This document shows, one piece after another, positions 29,327 through 45,000 of a DNA stretch of 47,852 nucleotides. Both the position numbers and the translations under genes were made by a program. The stretch comes from Syntrophus aciditrophicus. Lineage in GTDB: Bacteria; Desulfobacterota; Syntrophia; Syntrophales; UBA8958. The stretch covers positions 1 through 47,852 of the forward strand of contig DYRD01000012.1 in assembly GCA_020718905.1 (NCBI GenBank), read 5' to 3'. The stretch's first letter is position 1. Each line of letters begins with the position of its first letter. The notes beneath the pieces are model-generated. The model saw nothing but the letters and a program-made list of their open reading frames with translations, searched no databases and had not been told where the DNA came from.

Positions 29327-29506
29327 ATTTTCACATCCTGGCAAAGGAGATTACCATGAGTTTTCATCCCTCGCAATCACAACCTGATCAATGTTTAACA
29401 CTGATTTTTGGTTTCAGCCAAGTTAATCAAATTCATCCGCTGCGACGGTCGGCAACCTCGGATTTCGGGGTTGAGAAGCGAAATACTATCAACGAGAGGA
29501 ATACCC

Positions 29507-30729
29507 ATGGGATTCCCGAAGAATCATCTCCATTCACCGCTCCTAGGGATAATTTTCCTCGTGACGCTTGCCGCAGGCGGAGTAAATGCCTCGGATGATC
29601 CCTCCCGGAAACCGGATATCGGCAAGTTTGATTTAAATATACGTTCATATTACCTGAAAAGTTCATATGGCATTGCCTCTCCCCAGGAATCCCTGGCCCT
29701 CGGAGGGTCCCTGGACTACCGGACCCCCTGGTGGCATAATCTGATGGTCGGCGTGACGGTGTTCACGTCCCAGGGCCTGATATGCACCGATCCCGATAAA
29801 GGCGGCACCGGCATCCTGGGACCGCAGCAAAATGGCTATACGGCCCTGGGCGCTGCCTACCTGAAGGGAAAGGTCTCCCAAACGGAACTGACTGTCTTCC
29901 GTCAAGAATTGGATACCCCCTTTATCAACCCCCACGATAGCAGCATGACTCCCAATACGTTTGAGGCCTACACCATCACGAGCCGGGACCTCCCGTTCCT
30001 TACCCTCCTTGCCTCCCATGTCACCAAAATCAAACCGTGGACAGACACCTCCTTCGAGGGCATGTCCGCAGCAGCAGGATTTACAGGTACTAATGAACCC
30101 GTAACCATGGCGGGCGTGGTATTTGAACCGGCAAAAAATTACAAGCTGAACTTATGGGAATATTACTGCAATAACCTTATGAATATTATTTATGCCCGGG
30201 GAGACGGCGAGTGGAAATACAGCGACGACCTTGCGTTCGTGACCTCCCTGCAATTCCTGAATCAACAGGACGTATGGCGGGATCGTTCAATAGGGGCATG
30301 GTCGGGGGGCAGGAAACCGTCAAATGGAAGGGACTGGGAGTGACCTTTGCCTACACATCCACTTCCGGCGCTCACGACATAATTAATCCCTGGGCGGGTT
30401 ATCCCGGATTCACCGCCATGATCGTGAAAGACAATGACCGGGCGGGGGAGAATACCTGGCTTGCCGGTCTCTCCTACGATTTTTCTTTCCTCGGCATAAA
30501 CGGGTTGAGCGCCTTTAGCAACTTCACCAATTCTTCCACCCCGCAGACAGGCCCCCAGGCGTCACCGTGTCAGAGCGAACTCGATTTTACCGTGGATTAC
30601 CGTTTTCAAAAATTTATGGCCGGATTGTGGATTCGGCTGAGAACGGCTTTTATCACCCAGGACAAAGCCATGGGCGGTCAGGATATGCAGGATTACCGGG
30701 TGGTCGTCAACTACCGAGTTCCATTTTAA
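29507..30729 (+). CDS. OprD-like outer-membrane porin, with one frameshift
   Basis: This protein of about 407 residues starts at ATG 29507 after GAGAGGA, with a signal peptide (LLGIIFLVTLAAGGVNA). The body is rich in alternating aromatic/polar strands (DLNIRSYYLKSS, ALGGSLDYRTPWWHNLMVGVTVFTSQG) and ends in VVVNYRVPF, the aromatic C-terminus used for beta-barrel insertion. It fits the OprD porin group that passes small organic acids or amino acids. The frame breaks at about 30299: SIGAW should be SIGAMVGGQETVKWKG, so one base is missing before ATGGTC. The second frame runs to 30729. It is convergent with plsC, three bases apart. Confidence 0.78.
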
Positions 30730-30732
30730 TCG

Positions 30733-31488
30733 CTAATCCGTTCCCGGCTTTTCCCGATGCTGGGCAAAGTACTCCTCCATTTGGGCCAGGCGGCGGACAA
30801 TCTGCCCCACCAGGTCCCGTTGCGCCCTTAGTCCCTGTCCCGCGGGAATGGCGGGCAGGAAGGCGTCCATGGTTATGGTGAATGTTTCGCCCCGGCCGGG
30901 CATGTCACCATACAATATCTGGGCGTCCCCGCGGAGATAAACGCAAAGGACCCGGCAGTCCCGATGGCCCTGGAGAAAACGGCCCACACCGTAAGAGAAA
31001 TTCTCAGTATCGACGCGTCCCGATCGGGAACGCCTTCCCTCGGGAAAGACCATGAGGACCTGTCGCCGCTCCAAGAGATAATTGCATCTGGCAAGGGTCG
31101 CCTGCATCTCTTCCCGATCGCCTCCCCGGCTGACGGGAATGCATTTGGAGAGATAGCACAGGATTACCATGAAAAGGTTCTGCTGGAAATTGGCCCGTTC
31201 CGGAAGATTCCAGGGGAGCCGCTGGAACCCCTTGATATGCCCTCCCAGAGACACGAGGGCATAGATCATGATGATGGAATCGATCAGGGTAAGATGATTT
31301 CCGCAGATCAGCCATGGTCCCCGGTGGTTTTTCAGCAGCCCGGCCCACTGGCGGCGGATCTTGTCCAGGTCCATGATCCGGTAGCCCCTGAATTTCATGA
31401 AGAGAAAATACAGGGGCGCCAGCAGCCCGGCGGTCAGAAAGCCCAGGGCGGACTGAAGGCGGAGATGGAAAGCCGTCGGAAGGGTCAT
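30733..31488 (-). CDS. plsC: 1-acyl-sn-glycerol-3-phosphate acyltransferase family protein (PlsC-like)
   Basis: This 251-residue protein starts at ATG 31488, overlapping the ACP stop (ATGA). It has an N-terminal hydrophobic segment (LGFLTAGLLAPLYFLFM), the acyltransferase HX4D motif as NHLTLIDS, and FPEGRRSRSG for phosphate binding. Family members move acyl chains from acyl-ACP or acyl-CoA to glycerol phosphate or other acceptors at the inner face of the membrane. Its position as last gene of a fatty-acid operon, coupled to an ACP, suggests that it unloads the product of this operon's own ACP. Confidence 0.85.
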   Translation of the reverse strand: MTLPTAFHLRLQSALGFLTAGLLAPLYFLFMKFRGYRIMDLDKIRRQWAGLLKNHRGPWLICGNHLTLIDSIIMIYALVSLGGHIKGFQRLPWNLPERANFQQNLFMVILCYLSKCIPVSRGGDREEMQATLARCNYLLERRQVLMVFPEGRRSRSGRVDTENFSYGVGRFLQGHRDCRVLCVYLRGDAQILYGDMPGRGETFTITMDAFLPAIPAGQGLRAQRDLVGQIVRRLAQMEEYFAQHREKPGTD

Positions 31489-31703
31489 AGCTTTTTCTTG
31501 ATCAGCTCCACGGCGTCGCCGATCGTAAGGATCTTGTCGGCCTCATCGTCCTCTATGATAATCCCGAAGATATCCTCGCACTTGATGATGACATCCAGAA
31601 GGCGGGCCGAATTCACCTTGAGATCATCGAGGATGTGGGTCGTCATGGTCGCCCGGTCCAGGTGGGTTTTATCCTTCGTATACAGCCGCAGGATCTCGAT
31701 CAT
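31485..31703 (-). CDS. Acyl carrier protein
   Basis: This 72-residue acidic protein has the four-helix ACP pattern. The phosphopantetheine site is Ser32 in LKVNSARLLDVI (usually DSL) followed by the helix-II acidic stretch CEDIFGIIIEDDEADKI. It is shorter than AcpP by a few residues and differs at the DSL motif, consistent with a dedicated carrier rather than the housekeeping one. The stop overlaps the plsC start by four bases. Confidence 0.9.
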   Translation of the reverse strand: MIEILRLYTKDKTHLDRATMTTHILDDLKVNSARLLDVIIKCEDIFGIIIEDDEADKILTIGDAVELIKKKL

Positions 31704-31753
31704 TTCCGTAAAAATCTTATTCTCTTCAGTTTTAAAACTCCTTTATTGTTAAT

Positions 31754-33035
31754 TTATTTTTCTTCCCATTTCTTAAAGATCAGACAACTATTCACATCGC
31801 CGAAACCGAAGCCGGCCTTGGCAATAACGCGCAAATCGGGCATGTCTATTGCCTGATGGGGGATCTTCGCTGCAAAGGCCGCAATATCCGGGTGGATATC
31901 TTCGCTGTTCACCGAGGGATGAATGAATCCCCGCTGAAGCTGAAGAACGACAGCAACCGATTCAATAGCCCCGGCGGCCCCCAGGCAATGACCGATCATG
32001 GACTTCGTTGAGTTGATGAAAGGGAAATCGGCAGGCGGTCTCCCCAGGGTCTCGGACCAGTTCTTCACCTCCATGGGATCGGCGTAGGTGGCCGTCAAAT
32101 GGCCGTTGATCGCCTGGATGTCATGGGGCGTTATCCCGGCCGTCGGCAATGGCATCCTGGATGCAGCGCCGCACTCCCGCAGGGTTCGGAGCGGTCATGG
32201 TCCCTCCCATTCGCTGGCCGCCGCAGTTCACCGCCCCCCCGGCAACCTCGGCATAGATCCTGGCTCCCCGCTGCCTTGCCTCCTCCAAATCTTCCAGGAC
32301 CAGGACCGCACCCCCGGCCCCGGGGACGAAACCGCTCGCCGTGGCGCTCATGGGACGGGAAGCCCGCTCCGGCTGGTCGTTAAATTTCCGGCAGATCACC
32401 CGCATGGCGTCGAATCCGGACCAGATATAGGGAGAGGCGCCTTCGGAACCGCCGGCGAGCATCCGTTTCGCCAACCCCATGCGGATTCTCCACATGGAAT
32501 CGATGATTGCCTCATTTCCCGTCGAGCAGGCCGAAGAATTGGACGTCGCCTGGTTTCCTAAAGCCAACAGTCCCGCAATGCGGGCGCTCGTGCCGCTGTT
32601 CATGACCTGTTCCACAATCCGGCTCCCCATGCGGCGCACCTTGCCCTCGTTCACCATGGGGACGACGCTCCGGGCGATGGTGTCCATCCCCCCGATTCCC
32701 GATCCGAGAATGACGCCCGTATCCCAGTGGACCCCGTCGTCATCGCCTCCGGGCACCTCAAATCCCGCATCCCGCCAGGCGTCGATGGCGGCTACTGAGG
32801 CGTAGCCGATGTTGTCGTTGATGGACATGAGTTTTTCATGATCGAAATAGCTTTTCCGTACGGTTTCGAAATTTTCCGGAATTCCCCCGACCTGGCAGCC
32901 GAAGTTCAGATCCTCCAGCTCCTTGATGTGACGGATGCCGGAACGGCCCTCTCGCAAGGCTTCGGCAAAAGCATCCAGTCCGTGTCCATTTGGGGCGGCG
33001 ACGCCCATGCCTGTAATGACAATCCTTTTTTTCAT
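31754..33035 (-). CDS. fabF: 3-oxoacyl-ACP synthase II-type (FabF/FabB), with a one-base frameshift
   Basis: The start is ATG 33035 (MKKRIVITGMGVAAPNGHG), with GAGG upstream. The condensing-enzyme triad is present: Cys170 in SNSSACSTG, His in NGHLTATYADPMEV and His in KSMIGHCLGAAGAIE, so it should elongate acyl-ACP by decarboxylating malonyl-ACP. The frame breaks near 32140: ...IQDAIAD continues as AGITPHDIQAINGHLT in the next frame, consistent with one extra G in GACGGCC. It lies between fabZ and the ACP. Its product would lack both active-site His if the frameshift is real. Confidence 0.88.
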
Positions 33036-33082
33036 CTGACTGTTTACCTCAAAATGTTTTATTATCCCCGTCGGCCGGCCAA

Positions 33083-33556
33083 TTATCCCGCAAGAACTCC
33101 CTTGCCGGCCAGGCCCCCCCGACAGACGACTTCTCCGTCTTCCGGCTCGCCGGTAACGGCCGCTTTCAGACTTCCCTGGCGGAAATAGACTTTCCGTCCC
33201 CGGAAAACGATCTGCTCCCCCGGGACGACGATCCCCAGAAACTCCACTTCCTCAGCATAAGTAAACAGGGTTGTTATCTTCTTTACCTCGGTGACGGACG
33301 CCCCCGTCTTGATCAGGGACAGGTACAGGCCGTGGGCAACGATCCCTGTCTGGGCCATGGCCTCGATGAGGATCACCCCGGGGGTAACGGGGCGACCCGG
33401 AAAGTGACCGCGATAAAAATATTCGTCCCGGCGGAAGCGATAGGCCCCGGTGATGCACTCCCCGTCCATCTCCATGATCTCCTCGATGAAGCGAAACGGC
33501 GGTTCCTGGGGAACGGTCTTCAGGATCAGGGCGCGCATAGCGTCATCAGCCGCCAT
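33083..33556 (-). CDS. fabZ: FabZ-type 3-hydroxyacyl-ACP dehydratase
   Basis: This 157-residue hot-dog protein starts at ATG 33556 (MAADDAM), preceded by GGAGG inside the fabG end, so the genes overlap by 11 bases. The catalytic pair is His51 in RGHFPGRPVTPG and Glu65 in VILIEAMAQT, the FabZ arrangement, with PPFRFIEEI at the N-terminus. It removes water from 3-hydroxyacyl-ACP. It is intact. Having both this and a FabA-type dehydratase in one operon is unusual for simple saturated-chain synthesis. Confidence 0.88.
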   Translation of the reverse strand: MAADDAMRALILKTVPQEPPFRFIEEIMEMDGECITGAYRFRRDEYFYRGHFPGRPVTPGVILIEAMAQTGIVAHGLYLSLIKTGASVTEVKKITTLFTYAEEVEFLGIVVPGEQIVFRGRKVYFRQGSLKAAVTGEPEDGEVVCRGGLAGKGVLAG

Positions 33557-34274
33557 AGAGACCTCCGTTGACGTGAAGCACCGATCCGGTGATATACGTC
33601 GCGCCGGAGGCGAGAAAGGCAACGACCTCCGCCACCTCTTCCGGCTTCCCCATGCGTTTCAGGGGAATATTGGCCAGGAGCCGTTCCTGAACTTCTTCTG
33701 GCAGGCCTGCAGTCATCTCCGTGGCGATGAAACCGGGCGCTACGGCGTTTACGAGGATCTCGCGCCCCGCAAACTCCTTGCTCAGAGATTTCGTAAAGGC
33801 ATCGAGGGCGGCCTTCTCCATGGTGTAGGGGATCTGTCCGCCGTTGCCCGTATGGCCGACGACGCTGCTGATGCTGATGATCCGCCCCTGATTCCGGCGG
33901 AGCATGAATTGCCGCAAAACGCGCTTCATCAGGTACCAGACCCCTCTCGCCAGGGGGCGCTGGGCATCGAACTGCTCCAGACGCATAGAGTTGATGTCCA
34001 TATTTACCGAAAATCCGGCATTATGAACAAGGACATCCAGCCGGCCGGCAGCAGTCTTGATCTCCTCTACCATGGCGTCGATATCCCCGCTCTTAGTCAG
34101 ATTCACCTGGAGAAGAAAACCCTGCCCCAGTTCCGCCAAGAGTTCCCGGGCGGCCTGCTCGCTTTTTCGGTAGTGAATACCGACCATGAAACCATGCGCC
34201 CCCAGGGCCCGGGCGCAGGCGGCGCCGATTCCCGTGGCCGCCCCGGTCACAACGGCTACTTTGCTGTCTTCCAT
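33546..34274 (-). CDS. fabG: 3-oxoacyl-ACP reductase (FabG-type SDR)
   Basis: This 242-residue short-chain dehydrogenase starts at ATG 34274 (MEDSKVAVVTGAATGIG); the longer frame adds six unsupported residues. It has the NADP(H)-binding TGxxxGIG, VHNAGFS, Ser in ISISSVVG, the YTMEKAALDAF segment in place of the usual YxxxK (Tyr followed by Lys four residues later is kept) and PGFIATEM. It reduces 3-oxoacyl-ACP. It is intact, with translation overlap into fabZ. Confidence 0.9.
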   Translation of the reverse strand: MEDSKVAVVTGAATGIGAACARALGAHGFMVGIHYRKSEQAARELLAELGQGFLLQVNLTKSGDIDAMVEEIKTAAGRLDVLVHNAGFSVNMDINSMRLEQFDAQRPLARGVWYLMKRVLRQFMLRRNQGRIISISSVVGHTGNGGQIPYTMEKAALDAFTKSLSKEFAGREILVNAVAPGFIATEMTAGLPEEVQERLLANIPLKRMGKPEEVAEVVAFLASGATYITGSVLHVNGGLYGG

Positions 34275-34312
34275 GTTAAAGATCGTCCTCATAAACGTAA
34301 TGAATCATTATC

Positions 34313-34344
34313 ACCCATCCCCAACCCAACCCTCGCAGGGGCGG
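34313..34344. repeat. GC-rich REP-like repeat between fabG and fabA
   Basis: Read on the minus strand this is CCCGCCCCTGCGAGGG, then TTGGGTTGGGGATGGG. It resembles the copy at 25119-25160. It fills the only non-coding gap between fabG and fabA. Confidence 0.45.
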
Positions 34345-34368
34345 GAATACGATACCGATTAGAATTCA

Positions 34369-34953
34369 CTACCCTGTTCCGCCCGCATTGTTTTTCGACG
34401 GCCACGGATAATCGTCGTAGACGATGCCCCGGAAAAGGCCGGTCCGGGCCTGGTGAACCTCGGCAATACACTCCCCGTCCACGGAGATGGTCCCGTCGCC
34501 GATGATGACGCTGGCCCGCGATTCCGTAAGGGAGGAATAACGGCAGATCTCGATCTCGTAGCGGACAACGCGATGATAGGGACGGACCTGCCCATTAAAG
34601 GTCACCCCGTCACATCCCAGGGCCCGCCCCGCCCCCAGGCCGCCGCGCCAGACGCCATAAAATCCCTGCAGCTGCCAGATGGCGTCCACGCCGAGGCAAC
34701 CGGGCTGCACAGGATCGCCGGGCATGTGACACTGGAAATACCAGGCATTCAGATGGATATCCTGCTCGGCAACGATCTTCCCTCTCCGGCCATTTATCTC
34801 CAGGGAGAGGATGCGATCGATCATGAGGAAGGGAGGAGCGGGCAGACGGGCGTCAAAGCCCTAGGGAGGGTCCTCCACCAGCCGGCCATAGGAAAAGGCG
34901 ATCAAATCGGTAAGATCAAAGCTCTTACGGTTTTGGAACTCTTCATATTTCAT
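34369..34953 (-). CDS. fabA: FabA-type 3-hydroxyacyl-ACP dehydratase, interrupted by an amber codon
   Basis: The full frame starts at ATG 34953 (MKYEEFQNRKSFDLTDLIAFS) after GAGG. A TAG at 34861-34863 interrupts it. The frame then continues without shift as GFDARLPAPPFLMIDRI. The rest matches FabA: catalytic His in FQCHMPGDPVQPGCLGVDAIWQLQGFY, with the paired Asp in GVDAIWQL, and GQVRPYHRVV. FabA can both dehydrate and isomerise to the cis-3 product, which starts unsaturated chains. If the TAG is real, translation could restart only at an internal start such as ATG 34824, losing about 43 residues but keeping the active site. Confidence 0.85.
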
Positions 34954-35067
34954 TCAAAAATACCTCATATCAACGGTCAGCTATTTCCGTCCCCCTGAAG
35001 ACAAGTTCGGGCGGGCGATTCCCCGCCGATATCTCCCTCCCTCTCCTTCCAGGGAAATTTCTTCACA

Positions 35068-36078
35068 TCATGTCATCTGCCACATGAGGGTGGACCACGT
35101 CAGTCCCGCCCCGACCAGAGCCATGACCAGGCAATCCCCCGGCTCAAGATCCCGCCAGTGCTGACTCACAACTGCCGGGCCGCCGGAACAACCCGTATTG
35201 CCGAACATGGTCACGTTGTGCCAGTGGCAGTCATCGGGAATGGCCGACCGCTCGCAAACCGTGCTTAGGACACTCAGATTTGCCTGGTGGCCGACAAAGA
35301 GCAGACGCCGGCCATTATGGCCGTCCCCTCCTTCCCCTTCCTGCCTCCCTCCATAGGTTTCCTGAAATGTCCGCACGGCCTCCGTCATTTTACGGATGGC
35401 AAAACCCTGCACGGCATTCCCGTCCTGCCGGAAATAACCCGTCCGGGGAATAATCGCCTTCTGCCATGACGCCGGTCTCGAGGCGCAATCACTTGCCAGC
35501 AGGCGCATCCGTGACGGTACGGTCGCCGAAACTACGGCGGCCGCGCTGCCGTCTCCGAAGAGGACCGCCGTATTGCGATCCGAATAGTCGATACAACGGG
35601 TCACATTTTCCTGGTTCACGACCAGGACGAAGGGAGGCAGCGCCTCCGGCCTCATCTTGCTTAAAAATGACAACTGGACCCCGAAGGTCGAGCAGGCGGC
35701 GTTGATGTCAAAGCACGGCGCCTCGATTTCCAGTTCCGCCGCCACGGCGGCCGCCTCGGACGGGGTGACATGGTCCGGGGCTGAACTGCCGGAAATCACC
35801 AGGCCGATGTCTCCCGCAACGATCTCCGCCCGGGCAAGGGCCTGCCTTGCCGCCACCCCGGTCTGGGCGTTGGTGTACATACCGGCTTCATAAGCCGCCC
35901 GGGTGTCGCTGTTCTTCGTTTCCCGGATGTAATCAAGGGGCAGAGAGGTCCGGCGCTCCCGGATTCCCACCCGGTCCAGGACCCAGTCGTTACTGGTCCC
36001 GATATCGAGATCCTCGAGGAACCGATTGGTAATGACGTTTTCCGGGTGGAAGTGTCCCAAGCCGTGCAGATACAGCAT
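35068..36078 (-). CDS. fabH: FabH-type 3-oxoacyl-ACP synthase III
   Basis: This 336-residue protein starts at ATG 36078 (MLYLHGLGHFHPEN), three bases after the acyl-CoA dehydrogenase stop. The KAS III triad is present: Cys129 in NAACSTFGVQLSF, His in VGHQANLSV and Asn in MFGNTGCSGG. LFGDGSAAAVV is also typical. FabH primes chain synthesis from an acyl-CoA. The sequence is more divergent than housekeeping FabH, so a branched, aromatic or longer starter is possible. It is intact. Confidence 0.9.
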   Translation of the reverse strand: MLYLHGLGHFHPENVITNRFLEDLDIGTSNDWVLDRVGIRERRTSLPLDYIRETKNSDTRAAYEAGMYTNAQTGVAARQALARAEIVAGDIGLVISGSSAPDHVTPSEAAAVAAELEIEAPCFDINAACSTFGVQLSFLSKMRPEALPPFVLVVNQENVTRCIDYSDRNTAVLFGDGSAAAVVSATVPSRMRLLASDCASRPASWQKAIIPRTGYFRQDGNAVQGFAIRKMTEAVRTFQETYGGRQEGEGGDGHNGRRLLFVGHQANLSVLSTVCERSAIPDDCHWHNVTMFGNTGCSGGPAVVSQHWRDLEPGDCLVMALVGAGLTWSTLMWQMT

Positions 36079-36080
36079 AA

Positions 36081-37244
36081 TCAGCAGATCTCCCGGCCGA
36101 TGATCATGTCCTCCACTTCCCGAGTCCCCTCGTAGATTTCGTACTCCTTCATAAACCTGTAGCCGCCGTGGAGATGGAGCCCCTCATTGGCGCAGAAGAG
36201 GGCCGCCTCGGCGGCGGTATTCTTGGCCAGGGACGCATAAAGCCCGTGGTCTTCGGTCTTCTCATCAAGGGCGCAGGCAGACTTCATGAGGGCCAGCTTC
36301 GCCAATTCCACTTTTTTCCACATGGTCGTCAGGGTATCCCTGGCCACGGGAAGGTCGCAGATCCGCTGACCGAACTGCTTGCGCTCCCGGGTGTAGTTCA
36401 GGGTTACATCCAGGGCCCGTCGGGCCAGGCCCACGCCGATGGCCGCAACCATGGGCCGGGCATAATCGAGGACATCGATGACGTACCGGAAACCGAGACG
36501 CCGGTCGCCGATGATCTGCTCGGGGGCGATAACGACGTCTTCAAAGGTCACGGCGGCGGCATTGGACAACCGTTGGCCCAATTTGTCTTCCCCCTTGCCG
36601 ACGACGATATTCCCGCCGGTGGACATGGCTATCTTTCGCCCCTGCTCAAACCCGAAAGCCAGCTCCTCCGGGGAAGGCGCCGGGACGGGAACGATGACGC
36701 AGGCCATAAAATTGCCCGTCGGCTTCCCCACCTTGCAAAAGACGGTAAACTGGGCGGCGTAGGAGGCGTTGGTAATGAAGCACTTGGCCCCGTTGAGTAA
36801 ATAGGTTCCGTCTTCCCGGCAGCTCATGAACGTCGTCATGGCGCTGTTGTCGGAACCGGCCCCCGGTTCGGTCAGGCAGAAGGAAGCGAGGAGGGGATTA
36901 TCGACAAATGGTCTCAGGAAGGCCTCCTGTTGTGGACCGGATCCGTGCTGGGCGATGACGGAGTTGGCCAGGTCGTTGCACATGGCCGAAGTGGCAATCC
37001 CCGAATCGCCGTAAGCGAGCTCCTCGATAATCAGGGCAGCGGACACGGCATCCATTTCATATCCCTTGATGGCACCGGGAATGCTCAGATTCAGAATTCC
37101 CGTCTCCCAGGCCTTGCGGATAATCTCGCCGGGGAAGGCATGTTTCCCTTCCAGCTCCAGGATCCGGGGCAGGATCTCCGTTTTAACGAAGCGTCGGACC
37201 GTCTCCACGTACATGCGTTGATGATCGGACAAATTGAACTCCAT
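36081..37244 (-). CDS. Acyl-CoA dehydrogenase family flavoprotein
   Basis: This 387-residue protein starts at ATG 37244 (MEFNLSDHQRMYVE). It has the FAD- and substrate-binding segments SFCLTEPGAGSDNSAMTT and KCFITNASYA, the RKQFGQRI helix, and a catalytic Glu in IYEGTREVEDMIIGREIC (normally YEGTTE). Family enzymes usually oxidise acyl-CoA to enoyl-CoA; a few act on carrier-bound acyl chains in biosynthetic clusters. It lies between fabD and fabH with gaps of only 2-3 bases. No FabI, FabK, FabL or FabV is present. It may act as the redox step on the enoyl intermediate or as a desaturase; that is inference. No ETF genes are nearby. Confidence 0.9.
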   Translation of the reverse strand: MEFNLSDHQRMYVETVRRFVKTEILPRILELEGKHAFPGEIIRKAWETGILNLSIPGAIKGYEMDAVSAALIIEELAYGDSGIATSAMCNDLANSVIAQHGSGPQQEAFLRPFVDNPLLASFCLTEPGAGSDNSAMTTFMSCREDGTYLLNGAKCFITNASYAAQFTVFCKVGKPTGNFMACVIVPVPAPSPEELAFGFEQGRKIAMSTGGNIVVGKGEDKLGQRLSNAAAVTFEDVVIAPEQIIGDRRLGFRYVIDVLDYARPMVAAIGVGLARRALDVTLNYTRERKQFGQRICDLPVARDTLTTMWKKVELAKLALMKSACALDEKTEDHGLYASLAKNTAAEAALFCANEGLHLHGGYRFMKEYEIYEGTREVEDMIIGREIC

Positions 37245-37247
37245 CTT

Positions 37248-38198
37248 TCAGTTATCCTCACAAATGCGCGCCGCCGCGGAGAGGGTAGTCACGGAGAGGC
37301 AGTTAACACCGATGGTCTTGAAGAAATCCCGCAACGGCCGGCTCGGTCCGATTTCATATATCGTATCGGCCTCGGCGGCGATGGCGTCCATATTATCCCG
37401 CCAGCGAACCTTGCTCCCCAGCTGATAGGTGAGATAGCACAAGAGATCCTCCCGATGGCGGGTATGGAATTTTCCGGTATAATTCGAGGTTACCGCCATG
37501 GCCTTGTGGGCATCGACATCATCGCCCAGGGTTTGCAGGAGGTCGGAGAATTCCCACTCGATAGGGCGCATGAAGCGGCTATGAAAAGGGGCGCTAACAT
37601 TTAGGGGAACAAAACGTAAATCCCCGCCCGCTTCGACGACATCGGTGATCCTCACCGCCGCGTCGGGCAGGGCGCTGGCGTGGCCGCTGATGACGATCTG
37701 CCGGGAAGAATTCACGTTGGCGATATCTACGGGCAGATCGGACAGGGCCCCCTCCAATGCCTCCACATCGAGATCGGCGGCGATCACCGCCGCCATGCCA
37801 CCCAAACCCACGGGAACGGCTTCCTGCATCAGGCGGCCCCTCGCATGGACGACCTGCACGGCATCGCCCAAGGGCAGGACGCCCGCGGCCACAAGGGCCG
37901 TGAACTCGCCGAGACTGTGACCGCCGTAAAGGCGGGGCGACAGATCATAAAGGGCGTCCAGGCCGCGGAGCATGGCGATCTCCGTAGCCAGCAGGCAGGG
38001 CTGGGTGAATTCGGTCTGATCCAGCCGCTCGTCCGCCCCGAAACACATTTCCGCAACATCCCATCCCAGGGCGTCGGGGGCCTCTTCGTAAGCCTTCCGG
38101 CAAACTTGCAGTTGCTCGTAAAAATCCTTCCCCATCCCCTGGCGCTGAGCGCCCTGCCCGGGGAAAACGACGCCGACGGTTTTTTCTGAATTTGGCAT
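37248..38198 (-). CDS. fabD: Malonyl-CoA:ACP transacylase
   Basis: This 316-residue protein starts at ATG 38198 after GGAGAGG. It has FPGQGAQRQGMGKDF, the nucleophile Ser in GGHSLGEFTAL, catalytic His in SAPFHSRFM, and a Gln-rich QTEFTQPCL region. It loads malonate onto ACP. It is the first gene of the nine-gene minus-strand run and so defines the operon start, with the promoter expected in 38200-38300. It is intact. Confidence 0.92.
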   Translation of the reverse strand: MPNSEKTVGVVFPGQGAQRQGMGKDFYEQLQVCRKAYEEAPDALGWDVAEMCFGADERLDQTEFTQPCLLATEIAMLRGLDALYDLSPRLYGGHSLGEFTALVAAGVLPLGDAVQVVHARGRLMQEAVPVGLGGMAAVIAADLDVEALEGALSDLPVDIANVNSSRQIVISGHASALPDAAVRITDVVEAGGDLRFVPLNVSAPFHSRFMRPIEWEFSDLLQTLGDDVDAHKAMAVTSNYTGKFHTRHREDLLCYLTYQLGSKVRWRDNMDAIAAEADTIYEIGPSRPLRDFFKTIGVNCLSVTTLSAAARICEDN

Positions 38199-38602: not shown

Positions 38603-38932
38603 TTACGTAGAAAGACGAGACCGGATAAACCGGTTAAGTGAAACCCCTTCCTCGGCACAGCGGATAGCCAACTCCCGGTGCTTTTCAGGAGGGATTCTCA
38701 AAGTGAGATGTCCTTTGAATTTCTTGATCCCCAATGGCTGGGGTACTGTTTCACCCTCTTCCTGCATCCACTTGACGGATTCAGCGACAACATATTCAAT
38801 TTCCCGCAACGCTTCCTCAATCGTCTCCCCATGGGCAGCCAGGGAAGGGAACTCCAGGCATCTGGCCACATGACAATTGTCATCTTCCGACCACTCGATC
38901 CGGTAGGTATATTTTTCAATGTCACTCTGCAT
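38603..38932 (-). CDS. hicB: HicB-type antitoxin with ribbon-helix-helix domain
   Basis: This 109-residue protein has the HicB fold (YTYRIEWSEDDNCHVARCLEFPSLAAHGETIEEAL), which binds the toxin, then a C-terminal DNA-binding ribbon-helix-helix part (GHLTLRIPPEKHRELAIRCAEEGVSLNRFI). The start overlaps the hicA stop by 11 bases, toxin first, which is the usual HicAB order. The DNA-binding part should repress the palindrome in the hicA promoter. Confidence 0.9.
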   Translation of the reverse strand: MQSDIEKYTYRIEWSEDDNCHVARCLEFPSLAAHGETIEEALREIEYVVAESVKWMQEEGETVPQPLGIKKFKGHLTLRIPPEKHRELAIRCAEEGVSLNRFIRSRLST

Positions 38933-39161
38933 TTGCCTTCGCCTCCATTTTCCCGATGGCCCTCTTTACGTCTCTCACCTGATAGGATTTAGCCATCTTA
39001 TCAACTTCTTGCAGGTTTATCCTCGGATCGCCTTTCCAGGGCGTCTTGAAGATGTAATGACTCCCGCGTATCCTCGGTTTGCCGAAATATTTCGTACAGA
39101 TCTTCAGCAGATCGGCAAATAAGACATTCCGGGGATTTTCCAGGTAACCCCTGTCTTTCAC
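38922..39161 (-). CDS. hicA: HicA-type toxin (mRNA interferase)
   Basis: This 79-residue protein has a dsRBD-like fold with the catalytic His in RGSHYIFKTPW and a basic C-terminal helix (QVRDVKRAIGKME). It belongs to the longer HicA branch that starts with a LENPRNVLFADLLKI segment. The start is GTG 39161, directly after the promoter, with no ribosome site, so the mRNA may be leaderless. HicA cleaves mRNA, and the overlapping HicB should neutralise it. Confidence 0.88.
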   Translation of the reverse strand: MKDRGYLENPRNVLFADLLKICTKYFGKPRIRGSHYIFKTPWKGDPRINLQEVDKMAKSYQVRDVKRAIGKMEAKANAE

Positions 39162-42015: not shown

Positions 42016-45000
42016 TCACTGTGTTGCGGCCTGATAATAAGGCGACGGCAATTGTGGATACACACGATATACGTGTCGATAAACTTCGTCCGCACGGGAC
42101 TGCACTTCACCTTCCGAGTACTGGTCCACTGGCAGGCCTGTTGAATCGTTCCACAGGAAATCCAAAATAGCCTGTCTCACGGCGTCGCGTGTGGTTTCCT
42201 TATCTTGCCAGCGGGTGATGCGCAACTTCTCTGCCTTGAGTCTCTGGAGCAATTCTACCGCAATTGCCTTGACCCGTTTGGCCTCTCCGGCGGCAAGGTC
42301 CTGCTTTTTTAAAAGGTCAAAGACCGCCAGCGCTTCCTCATCGAGTCCTTCCCGCACAGCGCGTCTTTCTTCATCCGTCATCTCATCAATAAAACGCAGC
42401 AGCCCTTCAAATGTCTGCTCAATGGTTACCCGGTCTTTTTCGCGGTTGTATTCGGCCACGATCTGCTCATAATGGCGCTGATAATCCGTGCGCAACGGGT
42501 TCTGTTGCAGCAGCCGCTGAAGGCGTATTTCAATAGCCGTCTTGAGATTCTGGACCGTTGTGCGTTTGGCAGGGCTCCGCTCGAATTCCCGCCGCAGCCG
42601 ATCAAAATCAATCCGGCTGATGTCGTACGGTCCCAGGTCTTCTTTACCAACGACATATCCCCGTGTCTCGATTGCCTCGTCCACCACCTGATGCAATTGC
42701 CGGATGATGTCGCTGATGTCCGCCTGTTCACGGTCCTGCTGGAGGCTCTTGTAAACAGCGTTGATCGCCTCGTAATCCCGGCGGTAATCATTGACACCCG
42801 AAACCGTGAGACAGGCCTTAAATTTCGAGAATACCGCCCGGCACATCACCTCGAAGCGTTTCCGCGTCTCGTCATTCTCGTTGGCTGCCTCCTTCGCAGC
42901 GGCAATGGCCGCGTTGCGTTCAAAACCCTTCCGGTTGATGATGTTTGTCCAGCGACGCGCCCCGCTCGGTGAGAAACGCCCGTACAAACGCGATGGCCTC
43001 CGCCAGATCGGCCAGTAGTTCCTCTTCCGGTTTGTCCGGTTCCTTTTCACCACCCTCTCCCGGGCGTCCTGTGTCGCCTGTTCCGGCAAAGGTTGCCAGG
43101 GCCTTGCGCAGATGCTTGAGGATGCCGCAATAATCCACAATCATGCCGTTGTTCTTGCCTTCGTTCACGCGGTTGGAGCGGGCGATGGCCTGCATCAGCG
43201 TGTGCGCCTTGAGCTGCTTGTCCAGATAGAGCGTTGAGAGTGACGGCACATCGAAACCTGTCAGCCACATGGCACAGACAATGGCAATGCGGAACGGGTG
43301 CTCTTCTTCCTTGAAGGCTTTGTCCACTGCCATCCGCTACATGGTGCGGAACTGTGGTTTTTGACGCATGGCCTAAGGAAGATCCATGCCGTCCTTGATC
43401 AGGCGGCGATGCGGCGTAATATCCAGATCCCACTTGCGAAACTTGTCCACCTCGCCCTGTTCCTCGCTGACCACTACGGCCATTCTGGTTTCGCGCATCC
43501 AGGCAATCTGTCTTTCGCGATATTGCTCTTCCTGTTCGTCTTTGATCTCTGCCAGTTCGGCTGTCAGCTCTGCAATCCGTTTTTCCCAATAACGGGCAAT
43601 GAGATTATACATCTTCACGCAGGTGATCTTGTCGATGCACACCAGCATAGCCTTGCCGGTTTCCCAGGTCTCGGAATAATGATCCATGAAATCGCGGGCC
43701 ACCTGATCCAGCCGTTTGTCGGCAGTGATGATGTGGTAGTCGCGCTTGAGCTCCTGTTCGAGCCTCTGGGCCACATCGATGTCGGCGGTTTCAAGCTCCT
43801 CCAGTTTCGCGGCGATGCGCTCGTTGAGATCGCCCACCGAGATGCCGAGCTTGTCGCCACGGGCGTAGTAGTAAAGGGGTACGGTGGCCTTGTCCTCCAC
43901 CGCCCGCTGGAAGTCATAGGTTGAAACATAGTCGCCAAAGACCCGCTTGGTGATCTCGTCGTCACTGAAAAGCGGCGTGCCGGTGAAGCCGATGTAGGAG
44001 GCATTGGGCAGGGCGTTGCGCATGTTCAGCGCGAGCGTTCCATACTGGGTTCGGTGCGCTTCGTCCGTAATGACGATAATGTCGCCCCGTTCCGAATAGG
44101 GCTGGTTGGGTTCCACCTCCCGGTTGAACTTGTGAATTAGAGAAAAGATATGCGTCTTCTGAAGCGCCAGAAGCCTGCTCAGGTTCTCGCCGCTGGATGC
44201 CCGGCAGGGGTCGCGGTCGTTGTCCACGACGCCGCATCCGGCGAAGGTTTTATAAATCTGCGTATCCAGATCGTCGCGGTCCGTCAGCACCAGAAAGGTG
44301 AAATTGCCGCCCAGTTTACGGTGGACCTTTTGGGTGAATAAAACCATTGAGTAGCTCTTGCCTGCCCCCTGGGTGTGCCAGAAAACGCCCAGTTTGCCGT
44401 TGCGATTTTTCCGGTCGCGCACTGCCTCGATAGCGCGGTTCACGCCGAGGGACTGATGATTGCGGGCCAGAATCTTCTTGGTTGCACCCGTCGAGTCGTC
44501 AAAGAGAATAAAGTTTTCCACCAGATCGATGAAATTTGCCTTGTCGCAAACGCCCTTGAGCAGCGTTTCCATGTCCACCACGCCCGGCTCGTCCTCGGCC
44601 AAGCGCTTCCATTCGTGGAAATGTTCGAAGCGGCTGGTCACGGAGCCGATTTTTGCCTCTACGCCGTTGGCCAGTGCCACAATCGCGTTGTGGTGGAAAA
44701 GGTGCGGCACCGTATCCTTGTAATCCTTGAAGTTCTTCTCATAGGCGACACGGATGTCACGGTCTACGGTCTTGAGCTCCATGAACAGCAGCGGCAGGCC
44801 GTTGACAAACCCGACGATGTCGGCCCGGCGGCATTAGAGATCGCCCCGCACCCACAGTTCCCGAATGCATAGGAAGTCGTTGTCCGCGGGATGAATGAAA
44901 TCCAGTACTCGCAGGCGTTCCTTCACCCGCTCGCCCTTGCCGTTGCGGAAGGCGACATGCACGCCATCTCGGATAAGGTTGTATTTGTCACGATTCGTGG

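What the first reader, a model, noticed from the sequence alone, without database searches (positions are those of the whole stretch)
30733..38198. Dedicated fatty-acid operon with an acyl-CoA dehydrogenase and no enoyl reductase
Nine genes (fabD, acyl-CoA dehydrogenase, fabH, fabA, fabG, fabZ, fabF, ACP, plsC) form a near-complete type II synthase with its own carrier and acyltransferase. Two different dehydratases are present and no FabI/K/L/V. The flavoprotein sits between fabD and fabH. The cluster might make unsaturated or polyene-type acyl chains, or the flavoprotein might act in the reducing direction. I know of no named pathway with exactly this order.
Basis: partly seen in the sequence, partly recalled or inferred. 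Interest (0 to 1): 0.65.

Follow-up and report, generated by a model that had tools for sequence, protein, structure and literature searches.

The report
Acyl-CoA dehydrogenase in fatty-acid synthesis operon
In a group of oxygen-free-living bacteria, the genes that build membrane fatty acids lack the usual enzyme for the last step of each cycle and instead carry a relative of an enzyme that normally breaks fatty acids down, probably run in reverse; this has not been tested in the laboratory.

Summary
The nine-gene cluster is real. It is not an oddity of this window: ACAD orthologues occur in 53 of 60 Syntrophales genomes, and the exact nine-gene order in 30 of 40 loci read. It looks like the main fatty-acid synthase, not a polyene side pathway: this genome's only two FabA/FabZ-family matches lie in it. 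FabI was found in 2 of 60 genomes (this MAG is one), FabK over its cut-off in 0 of 60, FabV in 0 of 60 without a positive control. In other Desulfobacterota, 54 of 89 fabD loci from FabI-negative genomes carry an ACAD upstream of fabD, against 2 of 48 from FabI-positive genomes. In 17 loci electron-transfer-flavoprotein genes sit there too. FabI or a FabK relative takes that slot in six others. Best reading: the ACAD, fed by ETF, is the enoyl-ACP reductase (about 0.66). No biochemistry exists. Against: 35 of 89 FabI-negative loci have no ACAD there, sub-cut-off FabK relatives exist, and the window's own copy is damaged (fabA stop, fabF frameshift, ACAD deletion, phosphopantetheinyl transferase missing), so sister genomes are the better specimens.

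The parts
37248..38198 (-). fabD, malonyl-CoA:ACP transacylase
   Evidence: PF00698 E 2.7e-29; TIGR00128 234.6 bits, below its cut-off of 260.9
36081..37244 (-). Acyl-CoA-dehydrogenase-type flavoprotein, proposed enoyl-ACP reductase; 12 residues shorter than its relatives
   Evidence: three ACAD Pfam domains; best NCBIfam hit acryloyl-CoA reductase 226.5 bits, far below its cut-off of 640; orthologues in 53 of 60 genomes; deletion seen
35068..36078 (-). fabH, ketoacyl-ACP synthase III
   Evidence: PF08545 and PF08541
34369..34953 (-). fabA, dehydratase/isomerase; interrupted by a TAG codon at 34863-34861
   Evidence: NF003509 159.3 bits, cut-off 124, for the part after the stop; PDB FabA matches; stop
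33546..34292 (-). fabG, ketoacyl-ACP reductase
   Evidence: TIGR01830 235.2 bits, below its cut-off of 297.75
33083..33622 (-). fabZ-like dehydratase
   Evidence: PF07977 58.7 bits, cut-off 23; NF000582 72.8 bits, below its cut-off of 113
31754..33035 (-). fabF-like ketosynthase, in two frames (32121-33035 and 31754-32155); most relatives carry SxACSTG, NGHLTAT and TKSxxGH motifs
   Evidence: PF00109 and PF02801; frameshift; motifs
31485..31703 (-). Divergent acyl carrier protein (NSAR at the place where the usual carrier motif has DSL; usual motif recalled)
   Evidence: NCBIfam ACP models below cut-off, best 46.6 bits; NSAR motif seen in most relatives
30733..31488 (-). plsC-like acyltransferase
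   Evidence: PF01553 E 7e-13

Best explanation
The cluster is the main type II fatty-acid synthase of Syntrophales. The ACAD takes the place of FabI/FabK: it reduces trans-2-enoyl-ACP to acyl-ACP, with electrons passed from NADH by an electron-transfer flavoprotein (ETF) encoded elsewhere. Shown here: gene content, conserved order, near-absence of FabI, absence of FabK over its cut-off, preserved ACAD fold and active-site motif, and a parallel arrangement in other Desulfobacterota where an ACAD, at times with its own EtfB and EtfA, sits beside fabD. Inferred: direction, ACP as the carrier, ETF as the donor. The window's own copy is damaged and may be decaying or mis-assembled, so the claim concerns the family.
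For: (1) Orthologue in 53 of 60 relatives at E<=1e-60; exact nine-gene order in 30 of 40 loci, the other 10 partial. (2) In a phylum sample 16 of 395 genomes have it at E<=1e-85, all of this order. (3) The only FabA/FabZ-family matches of the genome are here; the same in 23 of 53 ACAD-bearing genomes, this one included (hand count). (4) FabI at E<=1e-30 in 2 of 60, FabK over cut-off 0 of 60, FabV 0 of 60 (no positive control). Eleven ACAD-bearing genomes have no FabI at E<=1e-30, no TIGR03151 match at E<=1e-60 and no FabV match; 8 of the 11 are rated at least 90% complete, among them G044, a single contig of 3,179,300 bases. (5) Of 137 judgeable fabD loci from non-Syntrophales, ACAD lies within 4 kb upstream on the same strand in 54 of 89 FabI-negative and 2 of 48 FabI-positive; by family 14 ACAD only, 17 FabI only, 1 both, 13 neither. 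Without G070, whose FabI match is weak, 2 of 47; without family f62, 45 of 80. (6) Same slot next to fabD: FabI in two loci (L205; L250), a FabK relative in four (L266, L315, L316, L317). (7) 17 loci carry ACAD and EtfA at the FAS genes; the EtfA in L185 matches CarE of the caffeyl-CoA reductase-Etf complex over residues 1-393 at 467.1 bits. (8) The FAS-linked ACAD of L189 is nearest by sequence in the PDB to 5ol2_C, 426.7 bits, an entry that also holds an ETF. (9) AlphaFold model of an intact orthologue: pLDDT 87.0, pTM 0.89, TM about 0.88 to medium-chain ACAD; the IYEG motif is in 40 of 40 orthologues.
Against: No biochemistry. 35 of 89 FabI-negative loci have no ACAD beside fabD; three of these have a FabK relative there, the rest solve the step in another, unidentified way that Syntrophales might share. 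47 of 60 Syntrophales genomes carry FabK-family (NMO) proteins at E<=1e-60, all below the FabK cut-off, up to 343.1 bits; a divergent FabK cannot be excluded there. The FabV search had no positive control. SDR-type reductases were sorted by NCBIfam for four of the 12 own-genome matches only, so FabL-like ones are not excluded in relatives. FabI was sought with one protein only. The Syntrophales ACAD is only about 31% identical to the FAS-linked ACADs of other orders, so the parallel may be two recruitments or coincidence. No ETF gene lies in the Syntrophales clusters read (the ETF hits in L119 and L108 lie outside), and ETF was not searched genome-wide. Nothing in the sequence was shown to prefer ACP over CoA. 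Two FabI-positive genomes (family f74) also have the ACAD. Nine of the 54 (family f62) differ: plsX stands between ACAD and fabD, and the one read in full, in L190, is 580 aa. Some Syntrophales have more than one fabD (4 of 16, this MAG three), so a second synthase may exist there.
Confidence: 0.66

Rival explanations
1. The ACAD runs in the oxidising direction: it dehydrogenates acyl-ACP to enoyl-ACP to feed unsaturated-chain formation, as FabX does in Helicobacter, and the enoyl reductase is an unrecognised FabK-like protein.
For: FabK-family proteins below cut-off in 47 of 60 genomes at E<=1e-60; carrier-bound dehydrogenases of this superfamily exist (prolyl-ACP dehydrogenase 4irn among PDB hits).
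Against: A FabA passing an NCBIfam cut-off is in the same cluster and could make the cis bond itself; 13 of 60 genomes have no FabK-family match at E<=1e-60, 11 of them with the ACAD and without FabI.
Confidence: 0.12
2. The ACAD is a beta-oxidation enzyme for acyl-CoA that only happens to sit in the operon, for instance for lipid turnover.
For: Syntrophales live by beta-oxidation (general knowledge); the fold is an ordinary ACAD; Smithella strain M82_1 has 16 ACAD genes (PMC5606693, passages seen).
Against: Position beside fabD and fabH kept across the order, a parallel FAS-linked ACAD in 15 other families, and its association with FabI absence.
Confidence: 0.12
3. A side pathway for special unsaturated or polyene lipids with its own carrier, acyltransferase and phosphopantetheinyl transferase.
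For: Divergent ACP, phosphopantetheinyl transferase after plsC in 38 of 40 loci, divergent ketosynthase motif NGHLTAT (usual motif recalled).
Against: No other FabA/FabZ-family match in 23 of 53 of these genomes and a single fabD in 12 of 16, so this would also have to serve bulk fatty acids.
Confidence: 0.08

Closest known systems
Classical FabI/FabK type II fatty-acid synthase
   Same: All other activities present (FabD, FabH, FabG, FabA/Z, FabF, ACP), with PlsC.
   Different: No FabI/FabK in the cluster; an ACAD stands next to fabD. The enoyl-ACP reductases named in the 2022 review PMC9260719 (FabI, FabK, FabV, FabL) are SDR-type or, FabK, an FMN TIM-barrel enzyme (abstract start and passages); a term search of its main text found 'acyl-CoA dehydrogenase' 0 times.
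Butyryl-CoA dehydrogenase-Etf and caffeyl-CoA reductase-Etf (CarCDE) complexes
   Same: ACAD fold used in the reducing direction with ETF (recalled); EtfA in a FAS operon of family f59 matches CarE over residues 1-393.
   Different: Those act on CoA esters in fermentation or respiration (recalled); here the genes sit in fatty-acid synthesis, substrate presumed ACP-bound. In Syntrophales the ETF is not in the cluster.
Helicobacter FabX
   Same: A flavoenzyme other than FabI working on acyl-ACP in fatty-acid synthesis (PMC8626469, abstract start seen; flavin recalled).
   Different: FabX is a dehydrogenase/isomerase of the NMO/FabK family (family recalled); the enzyme here has the ACAD fold.

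Membership tests
Acyl-CoA dehydrogenase superfamily | N-terminal, middle and C-terminal ACAD domains | tested here: met
   PF02771, PF02770, PF00441 over their cut-offs; fold match of an intact orthologue TM about 0.88
Acyl-CoA dehydrogenase superfamily | Catalytic glutamate in the YEG motif (position recalled) | tested here: met
   IYEG in 40 of 40 orthologues; present in the window copy next to its deletion
FabI enoyl-ACP reductase | SDR sequence over an NCBIfam FabI cut-off, inside the cluster | tested here: not met
   The only SDR of the cluster is FabG-like. A FabI exists on contig C250 of this MAG
FabK enoyl-ACP reductase | TIGR03151 over 453.1 bits | tested here: not met
   0 of 60 relatives; best own hit 248 bits
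FabV enoyl-ACP reductase | PF12241 match | tested here: inconclusive
   0 of 60, but no control genome rang
Enoyl-ACP reductase (as a function) | Reduces trans-2-enoyl-ACP | not testable with these tools
   Inferred from genome context only
Etf-coupled reductases (Bcd-EtfAB, CarCDE) | ETF partner | tested here: inconclusive
   ETF genes in the FAS locus with ACAD in 17 of 137 non-Syntrophales loci judged; none in the Syntrophales clusters read; ETF not searched genome-wide
Polyene / aryl-polyene cluster | Extra ketosynthases, thioesterase, adenylation enzyme (recalled) | tested here: inconclusive
   None among the nine genes nor among the 20 other window ORFs scanned; the remaining window ORFs and the relatives' flanks were not scanned for them

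The most novel reading that the evidence does not exclude
Across much of Desulfobacterota, textbook FabI has been replaced by an ACAD working with ETF, some with a ferredoxin-type EtfA, so that fatty-acid elongation is tied to flavin-based electron transfer and perhaps to electron bifurcation with ferredoxin. In Syntrophales the whole synthase was remade into a compact cassette with its own divergent ACP and phosphopantetheinyl transferase. The ACAD type would be a new class of enoyl-ACP reductase.
Probability: 0.35. Interest if true: 0.85.

Novelty: new variant of a known kind. Interest (0 to 1): 0.7.

Why it matters
Enoyl reduction is a key step of bacterial fatty-acid synthesis and a known drug target. 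If an ACAD does it in a large anaerobic lineage, there is a further enzyme class, a different electron donor, and a gap filled in models of syntrophic and sulfate-reducing bacteria in which no known enzyme for this step is found. It would also show one fold serving both breakdown and synthesis in the same cell, separated by carrier.

Tried and rejected
Rejected: cluster unique to this window; polyene side path. 'No FabI in the genome' had to be corrected for this MAG. Whether the C250 FabI is contamination was not settled: base composition does not set C250 apart, the seven other members of the genus searched lack it at E<=1e-30, and the MAG is rated 3.05% contaminated. Damage to the window copy: dN/dS against two sister loci is 0.075 to 0.32 over seven genes, so past selection was purifying and the lesions are recent or are assembly errors; the neighbouring OprD gene is also split. 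Long fabD frames in family f48 were checked for a fused reductase; no second domain was found.

Literature: ten searches. Searches returned no paper. The others gave listings, some capped (30 of 32, 20 of 1,862, 25 of 80, 3 of 3, 15 of 36); no listed title or abstract start proposes an ACAD as enoyl-ACP reductase. Only open-licence PMC papers are held, so this is weak evidence of absence. PMC2649909, PMC5606693, PMC4916218 and PMC9260719 were seen by passages only; PMC2649909 says that Desulfotalea psychrophila has FabI in another cluster.

Limits: the 140 fabD loci are from rows that one search printed (highest fabD scores of 373 genomes with a match); the rest were not read. Sets were chosen by hand for FabI status and family spread. 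Three loci were dropped because the contig ends just upstream of fabD (L184, L299, L305); L184 has an EtfA piece there. Genomes in a family are not independent; the family-level Fisher p is 0.0013.
Full report
What is there. On the minus strand from 38198 to 30733 lie fabD, an acyl-CoA dehydrogenase (ACAD), fabH, fabA, fabG, a fabZ-like gene, fabF, an ACP and plsC, with gaps of 3 and 2 bases between the first three. Pfam and NCBIfam support the assignments, the ACP weakly. Three genes are damaged: fabA has an in-frame stop, fabF a frameshift and the ACAD a 36-nt deletion. Intact copies exist in sister genomes. A phosphopantetheinyl transferase gene directly follows plsC in 38 of 40 relatives but has no match in the window; against L034 the alignment jumps at that place. 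The neighbouring OprD gene is also split, so either this region decays or the assembly has errors.

Whose cluster it is. Many titles of matching records name Syntrophus, Smithella, Syntrophaceae or Syntrophales; others say only Deltaproteobacteria or Pseudomonadota. ACAD orthologues at E<=1e-60 occur in 53 of 60 relatives. The exact order of all nine genes is found in 30 of 40 loci read. The other ten are partial: L033 and L042 lack the downstream genes, and L038, L039, L040, L041, L048, L057, L058 and L066 miss one or more of fabD, fabH, fabA, fabG and fabZ. In L048 and L058 an HMGL/carboxylase-like gene lies between fabD and the ACAD. In a sample of 395 genomes of the phylum the orthologue at E<=1e-85 was found in 16, all of this order.

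Main synthase, not a side path. In the window's genome (97.78% complete) the FabA/FabZ family has two matches, both in this cluster. By hand count the same is true in 23 of the 53 ACAD-bearing genomes. The other 30 have further or fewer matches; some of the extra ones are short and weak, while Smithella-type genomes such as G023 and G059 have a FabA on another contig. Of 16 Syntrophales genomes in the phylum sample, 12 have a single fabD at E<=1e-45. In six of the 12 (G008, G009, G014, G020, G023, G059) I read a fabD in the cluster; in G022 the cluster stretch shows none, so its single fabD lies elsewhere; the other five were not read. The window's own genome has three, so it may hold parts of another synthase.

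Where is the enoyl reductase? FabI at E<=1e-30 was found in 2 of 60 genomes: this MAG (contig C250; 429.3 bits against a cut-off of 337) and G027. FabK over its curated cut-off was found in none of 60; 47 of 60 have weaker relatives of that family at E<=1e-60, up to 343.1 bits. FabV was found in none of 60, but no control genome rang. Eleven ACAD-bearing genomes lack all three at these thresholds; 8 of them are at least 90% complete, and one, G044, is a single contig of 3,179,300 bases, the size I recall for S. aciditrophicus SB.

The wider phylum. Lack of FabI is not special to Syntrophales: only 84 of 395 genomes have it at E<=1e-30, and FabK-family matches at E<=1e-100 occur in 18 of 395, 4 over the cut-off. 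I therefore read 140 fabD neighbourhoods outside the order, 92 from FabI-negative and 48 from FabI-positive genomes. Three could not be judged. Within 4 kb upstream of fabD on the same strand an ACAD lies in 54 of 89 loci from FabI-negative and 2 of 48 from FabI-positive genomes (Fisher p 7.7e-12). By family: 14 ACAD only, 17 FabI only, 1 both, 13 neither (p 0.0013). Nine of the 54 (family f62) are a different arrangement, with plsX between and a 580-aa ACAD in the one read in full (L190); without them the count is 45 of 80 (p 3.1e-10). One FabI-positive genome, G070, has only a weak FabI match (33% identity) and a FabK over the cut-off; without it the count is 2 of 47. In L205 and L250 FabI, and in L266, L315, L316 and L317 a FabK relative, occupies the place next to fabD; three of these four (in G070, G089 and G125) are over the FabK cut-off. 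So that slot can hold the enoyl reductase. In most FabI-positive loci it does not: no FabI was seen there, so FabI lies elsewhere.

The electron donor. In families f59 (7 loci) and f43 (1 locus) the order is plsX, ACAD, EtfB, EtfA, fabD; in f62 (9 loci) EtfA precedes ACAD. The EtfA in L185 and L235 has a ferredoxin-type N-terminus, and that of L185 matches CarE of the caffeyl-CoA reductase-Etf complex over residues 1-393 at 467.1 bits. The ACAD of L189 is nearest by sequence to 5ol2_C (426.7 bits). I recall 5ol2 as a butyryl-CoA dehydrogenase-Etf complex. In the Syntrophales clusters read no ETF gene was found, so a shared ETF must be assumed.

The enzyme. The Syntrophales ACAD is a distinct branch, about 31% identical to the FAS-linked ACADs of the other orders, which are 69% identical among themselves on average (19 proteins from the loci, the outlier of L190 included). 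A model built from 30 orthologues has pLDDT 87.0 and pTM 0.89 and matches medium- and short-chain ACADs with TM about 0.88. The IYEG motif is in 40 of 40. Among NCBIfam models the best hit for the window protein is acryloyl-CoA reductase, 226.5 bits, far below its cut-off of 640.

Conclusion. The context points to the ACAD as the enoyl-ACP reductase. Direction, carrier and donor are inferred, and 35 of 89 FabI-negative loci without an ACAD beside fabD show that other solutions exist in the phylum. The parallel in the other orders may be a separate recruitment. Novelty in print: ten searches of the held library showed no such proposal in the listings seen; several listings were capped and subscription papers are not held.

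Noticed in passing
G000 contig C250:17156-17926: A FabI of the NF005717 type lies beside an RND-efflux-like operon (naming from the translated ORFs, not scanned) in this MAG; the seven other members of the genus searched lack it. Contamination or recent gain was not settled.
   Followed up: partly
window 29408-30729: An OprD-type porin is split into two frames, like fabF in the operon.
   Followed up: partly
window 42016-44782: Type I restriction R-subunit domains in two separate frames, possibly another broken gene.
   Followed up: no
window 38603-39161: A HicB-family gene with a 79-aa ORF before it on the same strand, perhaps a HicAB toxin-antitoxin pair; the partner was not tested.
   Followed up: no
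window 31485-31703 and 31754-33035, and relatives: The ACP has NSAR where the usual carrier motif has DSL, and the ketosynthase has NGHLTAT where NAHGTST is usual; both are kept in most relatives (usual motifs recalled).
   Followed up: partly
L048:8165-9607, L058:7677-9149, L100:17008-18495: An HMGL/carboxylase-domain gene (PF02436 and PF00682 in L100) lies in or beside the cluster in 4 of 40 Syntrophales loci.
   Followed up: partly
G000 contigs C263 and C284: The same 279-aa SDR protein on two contigs suggests redundancy in this MAG assembly.
   Followed up: no
35 loci among L179-L318: FabI-negative Desulfobacterota with no ACAD next to fabD; apart from three with a FabK relative there, their enoyl reductase is unidentified.
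   Followed up: no
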